From an uncultured Pseudomonadota bacterium (GTDB taxonomy: Bacteria; Pseudomonadota; Gammaproteobacteria; Ga0077536): a DNA stretch of 35,035 bases. Numbering within the stretch: position 1 is the first letter of the stretch; the number at the start of each line of letters is the position of its first letter. The translations under genes were made by a program, and so were the position numbers. The stretch lies in the NCBI GenBank assembly GCA_903825645.1, contig CAIKBL010000027.1, positions 1 to 35,035 of the forward strand, in the 5' to 3' direction. Shown in pieces: positions 17,566 through 22,323 of the stretch. The notes below the pieces were generated by a model. That model saw only the letters and a list, made by a program, of their open reading frames with translations, did not search any database and had not been told where the DNA came from.

Positions 17566-17961
17566 CTATTGTGCGCGAGACATCAGTCCCTCGGCACGAA
17601 TCGCTGCGAGAATGGGAGCTTCCGCGTAGCCCTGCAGGATTCTGCGCCCAACCAAGATGACGGGTACGCCGCGATTGCCGATGGCTCGATAACGCGCAGC
17701 ACCCTGCCGCGAAGTCTCGATATCAAATTCACAATATTCGATAGCATGCGTGACGAAAAGACGACGAGCCTGCGCACAGTACCCGCACCAGCTCGCTGAC
17801 AACATGACGACCGTCCGAGCCGGCGGCGGCAAATTCTGATCACAAAAACGCGGCGAAACCCTTGGTACGCTCAAAAACCTTATCGTCGAAAATATCAGCG
17901 CACTAATCACCAGCACTGTGGCGATCCTCCGTCGCTGGATCAAAGGCATCGAAGAATTCAA
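17566..17961 (-). CDS. Membrane-anchored glutaredoxin/thioredoxin-fold protein
   Basis: 131 residues from TTG 17961, or 127 from ATG 17949. An N-terminal hydrophobic helix (about 13-30, IATVLVISALIFSTIRFL) is followed by a glutaredoxin-like domain. TVVMLSASWCGYCAQARRLF carries the redox CxxC motif (WCGYC), and GNRGVPVILVGRRILQGY holds the cis-Pro loop. Expected to act as a thiol-disulfide oxidoreductase tethered to the inner membrane, probably facing the periplasm (inference). The TTG start overlaps the stop of the alkyltransferase-like gene as TTGA. That suggests translational coupling; neither start has a strong ribosome site. It is the last gene before the minus-strand terminator. Confidence 0.8.
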   Translation of the reverse strand: MNSSMPLIQRRRIATVLVISALIFSTIRFLSVPRVSPRFCDQNLPPPARTVVMLSASWCGYCAQARRLFVTHAIEYCEFDIETSRQGAARYRAIGNRGVPVILVGRRILQGYAEAPILAAIRAEGLMSRAQ

Positions 17962-18287
17962 GCGTTTTCCGAGTTTTCAGTCCATGCATACCGGCTGAGA
18001 TCGAGGGTTCCCGTAAGACCGAACTCAATGCCTTCCGCTTCGAGCAGAATGCGTTGGAAATGCGGTCGATCGGGATCGCTACGCGCGCTGATTCGGCCGG
18101 CCACATTTACGACCCGATGCCAGGGTACGCGAGTATCTCTAGATAACGCGGCGAGTGCATAGCCCACTTGGCGCGCGGCACCTCGACCAACCAAGCCTGC
18201 GCCGCGCGCTACCTGGCCATAAGTGGCGACATGTCCGAGCGGGATCTCCTGCACCCATCGCCACACCCGCTGATTGCGATTCTCCAT
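17958..18287 (-). CDS. Alkyltransferase-like (ATL) DNA damage-recognition protein
   Basis: 109 residues of the MGMT/Ogt C-terminal DNA-binding fold: VWRWVQEIPLGHVATYGQVARGAG, ARQVGYALAAL and RVPWHRVVNVAGRIS. In true O6-alkylguanine-DNA alkyltransferases the motif is PCHRV with the acceptor Cys; here it is PWHRV (Trp56). That substitution defines ATL proteins. They cannot remove the alkyl group; they bind O6-alkylguanine, flip the base (Tyr23 is well placed) and hand the lesion to nucleotide-excision repair. The start ATG lies 12 bases after the alpha/beta-hydrolase stop, and its stop overlaps the glutaredoxin-like start, so it sits in the middle of a minus-strand operon. Confidence 0.92.
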   Translation of the reverse strand: MENRNQRVWRWVQEIPLGHVATYGQVARGAGLVGRGAARQVGYALAALSRDTRVPWHRVVNVAGRISARSDPDRPHFQRILLEAEGIEFGLTGTLDLSRYAWTENSENA

Positions 18288-18299
18288 TCCGGCGAGAAG

Positions 18300-19097
18300 T
18301 CAGCGGTGGCGACTCAAAAAAGCCAATAGCCCTGTGTTGAACTGGGCCGGCATTTCGACGTTGAAGAGGTGCTGTGATTCAGGAATGATTAATAGCTCAG
18401 CGCCGGGGATCCTTTCATACATCAACTTCGCCGCATCTACCGTCGTGCCTGGATCCAACGCCCCGACCATCACCAAGGTGGGGACCCGTATCGCACTAAT
18501 GGTTTCCCGCTGGTCCATGTCGCGAATTGCCCCGGCGCAGGCCGCGTAACCGGCCGGGACCGTGGCGAGAATAGCCGCGCGCATTTCGGCTATGGCTGCG
18601 GATTCGGTGCGCTGGCAACGGGCGGTAAACCAGCGGCTAATGGTGGGCTCCGCGACGACGGCCATTCCGCCCTGCTCAACCGCTTTTATCCGACCGGCCC
18701 ACAGTTCCGGCGGCCCCATATAGGCGGCTGTGGCACAGAGGGAGAGTGAGCGCAGTCGGTTGCCATAATGGGTGGCAAACATCTGGCCCGTCATGCCACC
18801 AAGCGACAACCCACAGAAATGTACTTTTTCAAGTCCCAGCGCATCGAGCAAACCGAGCACATCGGTGGCCAGCTGAGGCAAGGTATAGGGCCCTGGTGGA
18901 ACGGCTGAACGACCATGGCCACGGGTGTCATAACGCAGAACACGGAAGCCGGCCGCGAGCAACGCCGGAACCTGTCGCACCCACATCGTTAGATTTGACG
19001 CCAATGAATTCGACAGCAGGACTAACGGATGGGACGGATCACCCTCGAGTCGGTAGTGCAGGGTCGTCCCGTTGACGGTCACACTTTGTTCGGTCAT
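18300..19097 (-). CDS. Alpha/beta hydrolase, 3-oxoadipate enol-lactonase-like
   Basis: 265 residues from ATG 19097, which is preceded by GAGAAAGAG. The alpha/beta-hydrolase order is clear: PLVLLSNSLASNLTMW (oxyanion region), YDTRGHGRS, nucleophile elbow GLSLGGM (Ser near 102), acid near VGALDPGT, and His in PESQHLFNVEMP. The overall pattern closely resembles PcaD-type 3-oxoadipate enol-lactonases, which act in the beta-ketoadipate branch of aromatic degradation. No other pca gene is nearby, so the substrate is uncertain and I give no symbol. It follows mscL by 87 bases and precedes the ATL gene by 12 bases, in the same orientation. Confidence 0.82.
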   Translation of the reverse strand: MTEQSVTVNGTTLHYRLEGDPSHPLVLLSNSLASNLTMWVRQVPALLAAGFRVLRYDTRGHGRSAVPPGPYTLPQLATDVLGLLDALGLEKVHFCGLSLGGMTGQMFATHYGNRLRSLSLCATAAYMGPPELWAGRIKAVEQGGMAVVAEPTISRWFTARCQRTESAAIAEMRAAILATVPAGYAACAGAIRDMDQRETISAIRVPTLVMVGALDPGTTVDAAKLMYERIPGAELLIIPESQHLFNVEMPAQFNTGLLAFLSRHR

Positions 19098-19184
19098 ATA
19101 AAAACTCTTTCTCGCCAGCCCCGAGGAGATCGCGTCTCGACGTCTGATGGGCATTCGGACGCATCAATGTAAAAGACCACATGC

Positions 19185-19577
19185 CTACTTTCGAAGGAGA
19201 TCTCGGATTTCCATCAATAAGACTTCCTGCGCGGAGGGCGGCGGCGGGGCCGCGGCAGCCTCCGCTTTTTTGATCGTATTGATCGTCTTGATCATAGCGA
19301 AGATCGCGAAAGCGATGATTAGAAAATCGAAGCAGGCCTGAATAAAGGCCCCATAATTCAGGGTTACCGCAGGCACCTGCGCGACCGCCGGTCGCAAGAC
19401 CAGTTTAAGGTCGCTGAAATTGGCGCCGCCCGTGAGGACACCGAGGATCGGCATCACCAGATCGCCCACCGCCGAGGAAACTATCTTGCCGAAGGCCCCG
19501 CCGATGACCACACCGACGGCGAGATCGACCACGTTGCCGCGCATCGCGAACTCTTTGAACTCTTGTAGTATCTTCAC
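19185..19577 (-). CDS. mscL: Large-conductance mechanosensitive channel MscL
   Basis: 130 residues. The N-terminal helix [45 protein letters not shown] includes the pore-lining TM1. TM2 is [23 protein letters not shown], and the cytoplasmic bundle ends [18 protein letters not shown]. The pentameric inner-membrane channel opens under hypo-osmotic shock to release solutes. The GTG at 19577 is preferred because AGGGAG lies eight bases upstream and the family starts a few residues before [11 protein letters not shown]; a GTG at 19586 is too close to that site. It heads the minus-strand run toward the alpha/beta hydrolase, possibly with its own promoter. Confidence 0.97.
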
Positions 19578-19668
19578 TGAAATCACTCCCTGACCTTAAA
19601 CGAAACGTCGGCTCGACCATACCGAGGAAGTGCACACGACGCCATACTCCTGTATCTACGCTAGCCTA

Positions 19669-20607
19669 TCAGCGGGGAAAGTGGTGGTGCTGATCCGGCC
19701 AGTCGCGATAGTTAAAGACCTGCCCAGACTTGCGCACCCGCGCAATTTCAGCGATTCGGAGATCCGCATATACCCACTGCGGCTTATTCAGTTCGCCGCG
19801 CGCGAGCACCCCGCTAACCGGGAAACCGTGGTCCACGGGCGTGTAGACACCGGCAGCGCCAATGTTCTTGTCGAGCGCCTCTGACCAGGCGCAGTCGCCG
19901 ACCGTTGGGGATTGAATGACGTAACACTGGTTCTCCAGCGCGCGGGCCTGACAACCAATCCGGACGCGATGATAGCCCTCCAGCGTGTCCGTACAGCTCG
20001 GGACGATCAGGATTTCTGCACCTTGCTCTGCCTGGTGGCGCGCAAAAAGCGGGAATTCGCTGTCATAACAAACATTGATCGCGACTCTGCCAAAGTCTGT
20101 CACAAACACATTCAGACCCGCCCCGGGCGACATCCCCCAATGCTCCTTCTCAAAACGAGTCATCATCAGCTTTTCCTGAAATTCGCAATGCCCGGTGGGC
20201 CAGAAAAAATAGGCCCGATTACAATAAGTGCCTTCCGCTACTTCGACCGGGTAGCTGCCCGCACACAGATATACATGATGGGTCTGGGCAAGTTCGCGGC
20301 ACAAATTCAGAAAATCTGCCAATGTCCGTTGCAGGTGAGAAAGGGAACGAGAAAGGGATTGCGCCACGTCGTCACCGAAAATAGAGGTGATCTCAATGGA
20401 AAAATATTCAGGAAAAACCAGCAACCGCGCCCCTTGATGGGCGGCCTCCGCGACCCAATTCCCGAATTTCGCGCAAAAATCCGACCAATGGCCGTGCTGA
20501 TCGAGCGGATATTGAGCCGCCGCTACCCGGACGATGGACGGGTCCACAGTCATACGGCGTGCCCGCAGTAATTCGGGTTGGCTTCGAAGCACCCCCGAAA
20601 TAACCAT
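19669..20607 (-). CDS. Nitrilase-superfamily carbon-nitrogen hydrolase
   Basis: 312 residues from ATG 20607, or 294 from ATG 20553 (MTVDPSIVRVAAAQYP), which fits the family start better; no ribosome site decides. The catalytic triad is visible: Glu67 in LLVFPEYFSIE, Lys146 in FQEKLMMTRFEKEHWG and Cys180 in VAINVCYDSEFP. A C-terminal part with QARALENQCYVIQSPTVGD follows. These cytosolic enzymes hydrolyse amides or nitriles. The closest-looking subgroup is the one found fused C-terminal to a GNAT domain in proteins such as Bacillus YhcX. Here a GNAT gene lies 49 bases upstream in the same operon, as if the fusion were split. Substrate unknown. Confidence 0.88.
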   Translation of the reverse strand: MVISGVLRSQPELLRARRMTVDPSIVRVAAAQYPLDQHGHWSDFCAKFGNWVAEAAHQGARLLVFPEYFSIEITSIFGDDVAQSLSRSLSHLQRTLADFLNLCRELAQTHHVYLCAGSYPVEVAEGTYCNRAYFFWPTGHCEFQEKLMMTRFEKEHWGMSPGAGLNVFVTDFGRVAINVCYDSEFPLFARHQAEQGAEILIVPSCTDTLEGYHRVRIGCQARALENQCYVIQSPTVGDCAWSEALDKNIGAAGVYTPVDHGFPVSGVLARGELNKPQWVYADLRIAEIARVRKSGQVFNYRDWPDQHHHFPR

Positions 20608-20656
20608 AACGGGGCCGAGTCGAGGATGAATCGCCGCAGGGGATAAGCCTTATCAA

Positions 20657-21259
20657 TCACAAGCGTTTCAACCAGAATTGCAGCGCCTTCACTGAGGACT
20701 TGTGGTCAGGTACTTCCGGCCAGGCAAGGTAAGCACGCAATTTCGGTTGGGGGGTATATCCAAAATGAAGCCAGACTGGATCGAGTGACCGGTAGCCCGA
20801 GGGACGTGCCAGATGGTCGCACGCCCGAATCACACCACATAGCGCCATCACGCCAAAGCCAAGCGCCCGCGCGTGAGCCTCGCGGCGCGCCATAAAAGTG
20901 CGATACGTTCCACGACCACGATAGTCGGGGAGCAGGACGGATTCACCGCAGTAAAATATTTCGCGCACATCGATGCCCTCGGCGCGGAAAGGTTGCTGGA
21001 AGGCGTCTGCCTCCTGGAGGAGCGGTAAGCCGGTGGAGACACCGACGATCCGGATCCCATCCCGCACAAGGACTGCGAAACTCTCGGGGCTCTGTGAATA
21101 GGTGGCGAGATACGCCTCTTCGTAGGCCAGCGAACCGGCATAGAGGTAAGGATATTCCCGAAACACCGAAATCCGCAGCGTAGCGATTTCAGAGAGACAG
21201 GCCTGGAAGGCCGGCATCCGGCCGGTCATGACGTCGATTTCAAGGAGGTCCGTTTTCAA
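20657..21259 (-). CDS. GNAT-family N-acetyltransferase
   Basis: 200 residues from a TTG at 21259, which overlaps the stop of the preceding gene as TTGA. This start places the conserved LSEIATLRISVFREYPYLYAG near residue 22, as in relatives; ATG 21229 would remove ten residues. The acetyl-CoA motif is GESVLLPDYRGRGTYRTF (about 105-122), with Arg-Gly-Arg-Gly as the pyrophosphate loop. The C-terminal part ends WLHFGYTPQPKLRAYLAWPEV. Expected to transfer an acyl group from acyl-CoA to a small amine. Its neighbours, an NTF2-fold protein and a nitrilase-family hydrolase, suggest acylation and deacylation steps in one small-molecule pathway (inference). Confidence 0.83.
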   Translation of the reverse strand: MKTDLLEIDVMTGRMPAFQACLSEIATLRISVFREYPYLYAGSLAYEEAYLATYSQSPESFAVLVRDGIRIVGVSTGLPLLQEADAFQQPFRAEGIDVREIFYCGESVLLPDYRGRGTYRTFMARREAHARALGFGVMALCGVIRACDHLARPSGYRSLDPVWLHFGYTPQPKLRAYLAWPEVPDHKSSVKALQFWLKRL

Positions 21260-21663
21260 CCGCCGACCTGGAAAACCCAGTCCCACAGATTGTAGTAATT
21301 TGTGACCCGAGAAATATGGTTTTCGCGTAGTTCGAAAAATGCACCCGCAGGCAAGCGATAACGCTGTCCCGAGGCCAGGGGTAGTCCTTCGTCGCTGATC
21401 AGATATTGCCCAACGACGGTAAATTCAGCGGCCGCCCGACGGCCATCGCGGCTGAGCATGATTTCCAGATCAACCAACTGCTCGTCGTAGCTACGATTCA
21501 TTCGCGCCAGGAAAAGCGTAAACGCGTCTCTGCCAATTTCGCGCACGCCTTGATTAATGTCGTGAATAACATCCTCAGTAAGCAACGCCAGCAAAGCCGG
21601 CATATCACCGGCGTTGAACGCCGTATAATAACGCTGAATGAGCCTCTCCGCTTTTTCGCACAT
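21256..21663 (-). CDS. SnoaL/ketosteroid-isomerase-like NTF2-fold protein
   Basis: 135 residues with the NTF2-like cone fold: a first helix AERLIQRYYTAFNAGDMPALLALLTEDVIHDINQG, then EIGRDAFTLFLARMNRSYDEQLVDLEIML, and strands AAAEFTVVGQYL, GQRYRLPAGAFFELRENHISRVTNYYNLWDWVFQVGG. 'DVIHDINQG' and the YYN at the C-terminus mark the subgroup annotated as ketosteroid isomerase-related. Function of the subgroup is not established; such folds can isomerise, cyclise or simply bind hydrophobic ligands. It starts 36 bases after the PaiB-like gene and overlaps the GNAT start, so it belongs to the same transcript. Confidence 0.83.
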   Translation of the reverse strand: MCEKAERLIQRYYTAFNAGDMPALLALLTEDVIHDINQGVREIGRDAFTLFLARMNRSYDEQLVDLEIMLSRDGRRAAAEFTVVGQYLISDEGLPLASGQRYRLPAGAFFELRENHISRVTNYYNLWDWVFQVGG

Positions 21664-21699
21664 CGGGTATCTACCGGCTAAACAGATCTACGTAAGCCA

Positions 21700-22323
21700 T
21701 CATACTTCACTCGACGGCGCGGGCGCAGACCCGGCCGATTGCATGAGCGCGCCGATTTCGTGGGCGGCCTCCCCCGGCTCCTGTAAGAGTTTTGCCGCTA
21801 CGCTGGCCTGGTCCGCGGCACTCCGGTTCTGGCTAAGCTTACGTTTGCCGAGACAGGTCTCGACCGTGAGCTCAAAACCCCGGATACCGCTTAACAGTTG
21901 ATGGTAGATTTTGCTGTCCTCAAACTCGCCTAGACCCGATTCTCCTTCGTAGGCACGCGAGAAATCCGCCACAAGCCGGGCCGTTTCTATGTCCGACAAG
22001 CAGCGGAGATGGCCCTGAACATGGACCGCCACATAATTCCAGGTCGGCACGGCGGGTTGCGCGTACCAGCGCGGCGAAACATAGGCGTGCGGGCCATGGA
22101 AAACCAAGGTGGTTGGTGCCGCCAACGCCAACTGTTCACACTGCGCATTCGCCACCGCAAGGTGCCACCGGACACGTCGCGCAACGCGATCGACGAGAAA
22201 AGGAACATGGCTTATAAAAGCATGGCCCGCCGCGTTCGTGATCGCTAATCCAAAAGGATGTGCCATCATGAAGGTATAGGCTGTCGCCTCATCAGCGTCG
22301 CGAAAATGTTCCGGGGTATACAT
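21700..22323 (-). CDS. PaiB-like FMN-binding protein
   Basis: 207 residues starting MYTPEHFRDADEATAYTFMMAHPFGLAIT, followed by HAFISHVPFLVD, TTLVFHGPHAYVSPRWYAQPAVPTWNYVAVHVQGHLR (about 71-107), and LSGIRGFELTVE. This is the pattern of the FMN-binding negative transcriptional regulator PaiB, a pyridoxamine-phosphate-oxidase-like split barrel. In Bacillus the pai operon also encodes PaiA, a GNAT polyamine acetyltransferase; a GNAT gene is two genes downstream here, which is suggestive. The start has GAGGAGAG nine bases upstream. It heads the four-gene minus-strand operon and is divergent from the AI-2E-family permease, with 105 bases between them. Confidence 0.9.
   Translation of the reverse strand: MYTPEHFRDADEATAYTFMMAHPFGLAITNAAGHAFISHVPFLVDRVARRVRWHLAVANAQCEQLALAAPTTLVFHGPHAYVSPRWYAQPAVPTWNYVAVHVQGHLRCLSDIETARLVADFSRAYEGESGLGEFEDSKIYHQLLSGIRGFELTVETCLGKRKLSQNRSAADQASVAAKLLQEPGEAAHEIGALMQSAGSAPAPSSEV

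What the first reader, a model, noticed from the sequence alone, without database searches (positions are those of the whole stretch)
19669..22323. Four-gene PaiB / NTF2-fold / GNAT / nitrilase operon, candidate small-molecule pathway
The genes are on one strand with gaps of 36 bases, an overlap, and 49 bases. Nitrilase-superfamily domains of this type occur fused to GNAT domains (YhcX-like); here they are separate, consecutive genes in the same order. PaiB in Bacillus also partners a GNAT polyamine acetyltransferase. Together this suggests acylation and hydrolysis of an amine or amide, with a flavoprotein and a binding or isomerising protein. I know of no characterised pathway with this set.
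Basis: partly seen in the sequence, partly recalled or inferred. Interest (0 to 1): 0.55.

Follow-up and report, generated by a model that had tools for sequence, protein, structure and literature searches.

The report
Conserved acetyltransferase-nitrilase gene cassette
Three neighbouring bacterial genes (a small NTF2-fold protein, an acetyltransferase and a nitrilase-type hydrolase) travel together across many bacteria as one unit of unknown chemistry; here a probable heme protein of the PaiB family has joined them.

Summary
The conserved unit is three genes: SnoaL/TIGR02096 protein, an unusual GNAT (AlphaFold pLDDT 91, clear GNAT fold, no Pfam match above cut-off) and a nitrilase. In 275 genomes of the class, 14 of 14 standalone nitrilases of this type sit next to the GNAT, and 10 of 11 SnoaL genomes also hold both. 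All 13 GNAT genomes without the standalone nitrilase hold a fused nitrilase elsewhere. A second, named set is less regular: 28 of 50 GNAT genomes had a strong nitrilase match, and three Pseudomonas genomes had none. PaiB was found adjacent only in the window's family (10 of 18 loci) and keeps the heme-site residues of piperazate synthase and PaiB, so 'flavoprotein' is probably wrong. The nitrilase is kin to GNAT-fused nitrilases, but the GNAT is not their GNAT domain. MscL follows the nitrilase in two separate clades; formaldehyde-oxidation genes lie near 5 of 92 cassette loci. The substrate is unknown. Best guess: acylation of a small amine coupled to amide hydrolysis, a detoxification or repair step. 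A real, wide, apparently undescribed cassette of known kinds of enzyme: moderately interesting, not categorically new.

The parts
21700..22323 (-). PaiB-family protein (PF04299), probable heme binder; lineage-specific first gene
   Evidence: His54, Asn59, Thr94, Lys162 invariant in 7 family members and matching heme-site residues named in PMC13274692
21256..21663 (-). SnoaL/NTF2-fold protein, TIGR02096 'ketosteroid isomerase-related'; core gene 1
   Evidence: above curated cut-off; closest solved structure 3f7x, E 1.2e-50
20657..21286 (-). GNAT-fold acyltransferase of a family without a Pfam match above cut-off; core gene 2
   Evidence: motif LRIxVFREYPYLYxGxxxYExxYL largely invariant in alignments of 60 and 55 sequences
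19669..20607 (-). Nitrilase-superfamily hydrolase, standalone relative of GNAT-fused nitrilases; core gene 3; Glu67-Lys146-Cys180 and Glu153 invariant in 28 sequences
19185..19586 (-). MscL mechanosensitive channel, next gene downstream; linked to the cassette in two separate clades
18300..19154 (-). Alpha/beta hydrolase meeting the PcaD (3-oxoadipate enol-lactonase) model; family-level synteny
17958..18287 (-). Alkyltransferase-like protein (PF01035 domain); family-level synteny
17566..17961 (-). Glutaredoxin-like protein at the end of the same-strand run

Best explanation
SHOWN: SnoaL(TIGR02096)-GNAT-nitrilase is a conserved three-gene unit, found on chromosomes and plasmids, that keeps its own composition while its surroundings change. 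INFERRED: the GNAT acylates the amine of a small metabolite, the nitrilase hydrolyses an amide in the same metabolite or its product through the Glu-Lys-Cys thiol mechanism, and the SnoaL protein isomerises, dehydrates or holds the intermediate. The most likely role is disposal or repair of a reactive small amine or amide, in some hosts in connection with C1/formaldehyde metabolism. In this family a heme-binding PaiB protein was added upstream as sensor or enzyme, and MscL downstream.
For: Class sample of 275 genomes: GNAT in 27, standalone nitrilase in 14, SnoaL in 11. All 14 standalone nitrilases are next to the GNAT by coordinates; 10 of 11 SnoaL genomes hold GNAT and nitrilase, SnoaL being adjacent in 6 and elsewhere in 4. 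Fisher P 1.7e-16 (GNAT/standalone nitrilase) and 1.5e-10 (GNAT/SnoaL); still 2e-13 and 1.3e-7 without the three genomes of the window's family. All 13 GNAT genomes without standalone nitrilase (11 families) have a nitrilase in an open frame of 500 or more residues, against 33 of the other 262; I fetched 12 of these 13 and all 12 carry the fused GNAT domain. Same order on plasmids of Ruegeria, Aeromonas and Aquicella. Invariant catalytic residues. Formaldehyde genes (AdhC, FghA or formate dehydrogenase) within about 7 kb in 5 of 92 cassette loci (L135, L140, L147, L159, L181), contiguous on one strand in L140 and L147 and just upstream in L159.
Against: No substrate, expression or mutant data. 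Of 50 named GNAT genomes without an adjacent nitrilase, 28 had a strong match (E<1e-30), 14 only weaker ones and 8 none at E<=1e-10; three of those 8 are Pseudomonas genomes, one of which holds GNAT and SnoaL. So the nitrilase is not obligatory, although some of these genomes are MAGs and may be incomplete. 31 of 46 genomes with the fused nitrilase lack this GNAT. Formaldehyde genes near 5 of 92 cassette loci against 0 of 56 GNAT-only loci is suggestive only; the two Sphingobium loci are related, two further members of the family of L159 have SnoaL without AdhC, FghA or formate dehydrogenase nearby, and a Comamonas plasmid has the formaldehyde cluster without the cassette. Genomes are related by descent, so Fisher P values overstate the evidence.
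Confidence: 0.38

Rival explanations
1. A nitrogen-compound or osmolyte module: the pathway makes or breaks a small amide or betaine-like solute, and MscL vents it.
For: MscL is the next gene after the nitrilase in 13 of 17 window-family loci with room and in 5 Verrucomicrobia loci (18 of 74 GNAT-nitrilase loci in all), and the two groups lie in separate clades of the GNAT tree. A glycine betaine ABC transporter and electron-transfer flavoprotein genes stand just upstream of the distant GNAT of Azospirillum, and a lone SnoaL lies near homologues of those Fe-S/ETF proteins (59% and 49% identity, L183); BCCT-transporter and oxidase genes that I read as betaine catabolism flank a related nitrilase in Priestia.
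Against: 56 of 74 GNAT-nitrilase loci have no MscL next. A weak terminator-like site lies between nitrilase and MscL, though such sites are not above shuffles. The Azospirillum GNATs sit on a long branch.
Confidence: 0.2
2. A polyamine-control pair as proposed for PaiA/PaiB (recalled): GNAT acetylates polyamines, PaiB regulates.
For: PaiB is next to the cassette in 10 of 18 family loci; PaiA is the top structural hit (Z 17.4, rmsd 2.4); PaiB-family members of any kind are enriched in GNAT genomes (10 of 27 against 25 of 248, P 6e-4).
Against: PaiA ties with three other GNATs within 1 Z unit and shares 10% identity; PaiB adjacency was not seen outside one family; genome size may explain the enrichment (not tested).
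Confidence: 0.12
3. A damage-repair module: the nitrilase is an omega-amidase or deaminated-glutathione-amidase-like repair enzyme.
For: The best characterised sequence relatives are Nit2 (2w1v, E 1.3e-24 with the profile) and deaminated-glutathione amidase models.
Against: Far below the curated cut-offs (57.8 against 355 bits); does not explain the GNAT or SnoaL.
Confidence: 0.15
4. The genes are neighbours without a shared function.
For: SnoaL and GNAT-nitrilase are unlinked in 4 of 10 class genomes, PaiB is optional, and some GNAT genomes lack the nitrilase.
Against: Recurrence in many families and on plasmids in different contexts; strong co-occurrence.
Confidence: 0.05

Closest known systems
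GNAT-nitrilase fusion proteins (YhcX-type; the name and the CDD 'Rim1-like' class are recalled)
   Same: Same nitrilase class by profile (E 1e-72 to 3e-64); in the class sample the fused form stands in for the standalone one in all 13 GNAT genomes without it.
   Different: The standalone GNAT is another GNAT family. In the class sample SnoaL goes with the standalone form, but two named genomes (L073 Dyella, L080 Dokdonella) have SnoaL-GNAT with a nitrilase match in a long open frame elsewhere. B. subtilis YhcX itself was not compared.
Nit1C cluster (Podar et al. 2005, PMC1199592; passages read)
   Same: A widespread conserved cluster combining a nitrilase and a GNAT, of undetermined function in that paper.
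   Different: Nit1C also has radical-SAM, AIR-synthase, flavoprotein and two hypothetical genes; none of the named ones is among the three conserved genes here or the window neighbours scanned. The nitrilase misses the Nit6803 model (36.6 of 502.6 bits; that Nit6803 stands for the Nit1C nitrilase is recalled).
PaiB / piperazate synthase / NohD family
   Same: Sequence match to PaiB (9vyc, E 7.2e-30) and weaker matches to piperazate synthases and NohD; heme-site residues kept.
   Different: Activity unknown; PMC13274692 (passages read) says PaiB binds heme but lacks N-N bond-forming activity.
TIGR02096 proteins with solved structures 3f7x, 3i0y, 3f8h
   Same: Same family by sequence, E 1e-50 to 3e-40.
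   Different: Deposited as 'putative polyketide cyclase'; no activity is given in what I saw.

Membership tests
GNAT superfamily | GNAT fold | tested here: met
   Model pLDDT 91.1; PDB GNATs at Z up to 17.4 over 158 residues
GNAT superfamily | acyl-CoA dependent transfer | not testable with these tools
   needs an assay
Nitrilase superfamily | Glu-Lys-Cys catalytic residues in a CN_hydrolase domain | tested here: met
   PF00795 E 7.3e-26; Glu67, Lys146, Cys180 and Glu153 invariant in 28 sequences
GNAT-nitrilase fusion (YhcX-type) | nitrilase domain of the fused class | tested here: met
   Profile of 28 standalone nitrilases hits 16 of 16 fetched fused proteins at E 3e-64 or better
GNAT-nitrilase fusion (YhcX-type) | same GNAT domain family as the fused N-terminal domain | tested here: not met
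   GNAT profile finds none of 16 fused domains at E<=10 (default filters); reverse search best E 0.001; remote similarity only (hhalign P 9e-5, probability 59%)
Nit1C cluster | Nit6803-type nitrilase | tested here: not met
   36.6 bits against a cut-off of 502.6
Nit1C cluster | radical-SAM and AIR-synthase genes in the cluster | tested here: not met
   Window only: no such family among the cassette genes and the neighbours scanned; other loci were clustered but not annotated throughout
TIGR02096 | score above curated cut-off | tested here: met
   123.5 against 97.1 bits
PaiB / piperazate synthase | heme-site residues (His, Asn, Thr, Lys) | tested here: met
   His54, Asn59, Thr94, Lys162 align with His-61, Asn-66, Thr-102, Lys-173 of SbPZS
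Piperazate synthase / NohD | N-N bond formation or N-hydroxylamine dehydration | not testable with these tools
   needs an assay; a partner N-monooxygenase was not searched for
PaiA/PaiB regulatory pair | GNAT is PaiA | tested here: inconclusive
   PaiA top by Z but tied with three other GNATs within 1; 10% identity

The most novel reading that the evidence does not exclude
An undescribed, horizontally spread pathway in which a new GNAT family and a class of nitrilase otherwise fused to another GNAT process one amine/amide metabolite, with a TIGR02096 protein supplying an isomerase-like step. It protects against aldehyde- or C1-derived amine adducts, and some lineages wired it to MscL for release and to a heme-binding PaiB for sensing.
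Probability: 0.15. Interest if true: 0.7.

Novelty: new variant of a known kind. Interest (0 to 1): 0.42.

Why it matters
A gene set that keeps its composition across many bacterial families and on plasmids usually marks one metabolic step sequence. Here four annotated but functionally blank families (TIGR02096, an unmodelled GNAT family, the GNAT-linked nitrilase class, lineage PaiB) become one testable unit. The swap between standalone and fused nitrilase gives a prediction for the unexplained GNAT-nitrilase fusions as well.

Tried and rejected
Rejected: a simple split of a YhcX-type fusion (the GNAT differs); Nit1C membership; FMN as the PaiB cofactor is unlikely. Considered but left open: formaldehyde detoxification (5 of 92 cassette loci against 0 of 56 GNAT-only loci; a PF04828 GFA gene after a lone SnoaL in L188, whose family I recall as broad); osmolyte link through MscL.

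Led nowhere: paper searches for the gene set or its combination with formaldehyde. Searches returned no paper; one search listed 8 papers, none of which looked relevant by title; led to the two papers quoted (PMC13274692, PMC1199592) but to no description of the set. No match of the Aeromonas cassette DNA in E. coli genomes. Conserved operon neighbours beyond MscL and lineage-level synteny were not found. A SnoaL survey of the family of G542 (unnamed; its GNAT groups with a Sphingobium plasmid's) gave 3 of 59 genomes, only G542 near formaldehyde oxidation genes. The GNAT fold search does not separate PaiA from other GNATs. Rows dropped: loci with short flanks (L116, L022) in the MscL count, into which L094 (MscL after nitrilase) did not enter; L113, with a broken GNAT frame, and other rows with stops or short matches in the tree; G073 (open frame 272) from the fused set.
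Full report
OBSERVATION. The four ORFs, strand and gaps are as reported. PaiB/FMN_bind_2, SnoaL_2/TIGR02096 and CN_hydrolase matches are above curated cut-offs. The third protein has no Pfam match above cut-off, but its AlphaFold model (mean pLDDT 91.1, 55 sequences) is a GNAT fold. The same-strand run continues with MscL, a PcaD-like hydrolase, an alkyltransferase-like protein and a glutaredoxin.

IS IT A UNIT? In a sample of 275 genomes of the class, the GNAT occurs in 27 (all at E below 1e-40, none between there and the 1e-10 limit), the standalone nitrilase in 14 at above 200 bits and SnoaL in 11. All 14 standalone nitrilases lie beside the GNAT. Ten of the 11 SnoaL genomes hold both; SnoaL is adjacent in 6 (G000, G004, G013, G100, G166, G190) and elsewhere in 4 (G047, G095, G195, G274). 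A second nitrilase group, 30-36% identical and in open frames of 500 or more residues, is present in 46 genomes. I fetched 16 of these 46, and all 16 carry an N-terminal GNAT domain. All 13 GNAT genomes without a standalone nitrilase have it, against 33 of 262 others. Only 2 of the 14 standalone genomes also have the fusion. Fisher values are; shared descent makes them optimistic, although the 13 genomes fall in 11 families.

LIMITS OF THE UNIT. A second, named set, from many phyla and including members of the same class, is less regular. Of 80 named GNAT loci (the best 80 of 167), 51 had no nitrilase match within the fetched flank. I searched 50 of those 51 genomes: 28 have a strong match (E<1e-30), 14 only weaker ones and 8 none at E<=1e-10. 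Three of the 8 are Pseudomonas (L070, L077, L091). Two with strong matches in long open frames, Dyella and Dokdonella (L073, L080), have SnoaL-GNAT, so SnoaL is not confined to the standalone nitrilase. In Verrucomicrobia a diverged nitrilase of the same class follows the GNAT in nine loci (E 4e-28 to 2e-36 with the profile).

THE WINDOW'S FAMILY. All 18 loci (window plus 17 relatives) hold SnoaL, GNAT and nitrilase; L113 has a broken GNAT frame and in L102 an opposite-strand gene sits between GNAT and nitrilase. PaiB is adjacent in 10 of 18. So the four-gene set recurs, but I found it only here. In the class sample the PaiB matches outside G000 and G004 are 29-42% identical and, in the GNAT genomes, lie elsewhere; none of the 80 named loci shows one.

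SPREAD. The three-gene order is on plasmids of Ruegeria, Aeromonas caviae and Aquicella; a Sphingobium plasmid carries SnoaL-GNAT and a Xanthomonas plasmid GNAT-nitrilase. In most Pseudomonas loci seen, SnoaL is divergent from GNAT-nitrilase. Neighbours otherwise differ from lineage to lineage.

CONTEXT CLUES. MscL is the next gene on the same strand in 18 of 74 GNAT-nitrilase loci with at least 700 nt downstream: 13 of 17 in the window's family and 5 in Verrucomicrobia. The two groups lie in separate, supported clades of the GNAT tree of 134 rows (100/99 and 100/95; bootstrap not fully settled). Genes for glutathione-dependent formaldehyde oxidation or formate dehydrogenase are within about 7 kb in 5 of 92 loci holding SnoaL or the nitrilase, and in 0 of 56 GNAT-only loci; in Sphingobium they run AdhC-VOC-FghA-SnoaL-GNAT. 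A Comamonas plasmid has nearly the same formaldehyde cluster as Aeromonas but no cassette. These are leads, not proof.

PARTS. Nitrilase: Glu67, Lys146, Cys180 and Glu153 invariant in 28 sequences; nearest solved relatives are Nit2-type proteins; far below the cut-offs of all nine NCBIfam models listed. GNAT: the region 37-60 (LRIxVFREYPYLYxGxxxYExxYL) holds many of the invariant columns, which in GNATs is usually near the acceptor site (recalled), pointing to one specific acceptor. Against the GNAT domains of 16 fused proteins the similarity is remote. [quoted passage not shown] That paper says PaiB binds heme but lacks N-N bond-forming activity.

MECHANISM. The most likely reading is acylation of a small amine by the GNAT and amide hydrolysis by the nitrilase on the same metabolite line, with the SnoaL protein on an intermediate. 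That the three work together is supported; the substrate and order of steps are inference. Rivals are an osmolyte module with MscL, a polyamine pair, a repair amidase, and chance neighbourhood (only tenable for PaiB).

KNOWN OR NEW. The nearest described things are GNAT-nitrilase fusions (YhcX appears in auxin papers; search listing only) and the Nit1C cluster (passages read), from which this differs. My paper searches found no description of this set; the library holds open-licence PMC papers only, so the claim of novelty is limited to it.

Noticed in passing
window 18300-19154: Alpha/beta hydrolase passes the curated PcaD (3-oxoadipate enol-lactonase) cut-off (264.8 against 255.85 bits) and stays close to the cassette in most of the family's loci; other beta-ketoadipate genes were not looked for.
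   Followed up: partly
L135 5987-7891 and L143: In an Aeromonas caviae plasmid the SnoaL-GNAT-nitrilase cassette lies between a LysR gene and a formaldehyde cluster; a Comamonas plasmid has LysR and the cluster without the cassette and without frmR, so that block looks inserted in one or lost from the other.
   Followed up: partly
L141 5995-8254: A Priestia plasmid carries a standalone nitrilase followed by two GNAT genes, the first matching the GNAT domain of the fused nitrilases (E 8.5e-51): a split form of the fusion, beside oxidase genes that look like betaine catabolism.
   Followed up: no
L113 6970-7529: GNAT gene interrupted by a frame break in one family member (G030) while SnoaL and nitrilase look intact.
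   Followed up: no
L102 4496-5551: An opposite-strand gene (DHH-phosphoesterase-like by recalled motifs) sits between GNAT and nitrilase in one genus member.
   Followed up: no
L136, L137, L161, L163-L165, L167-L170: In genomes akin to Ruegeria the cassette often sits in a housekeeping run (UPF0262 and low-molecular-weight phosphatase upstream; IF-1, Maf, RNase E/G and YacG downstream in the annotated Ruegeria plasmids).
   Followed up: no
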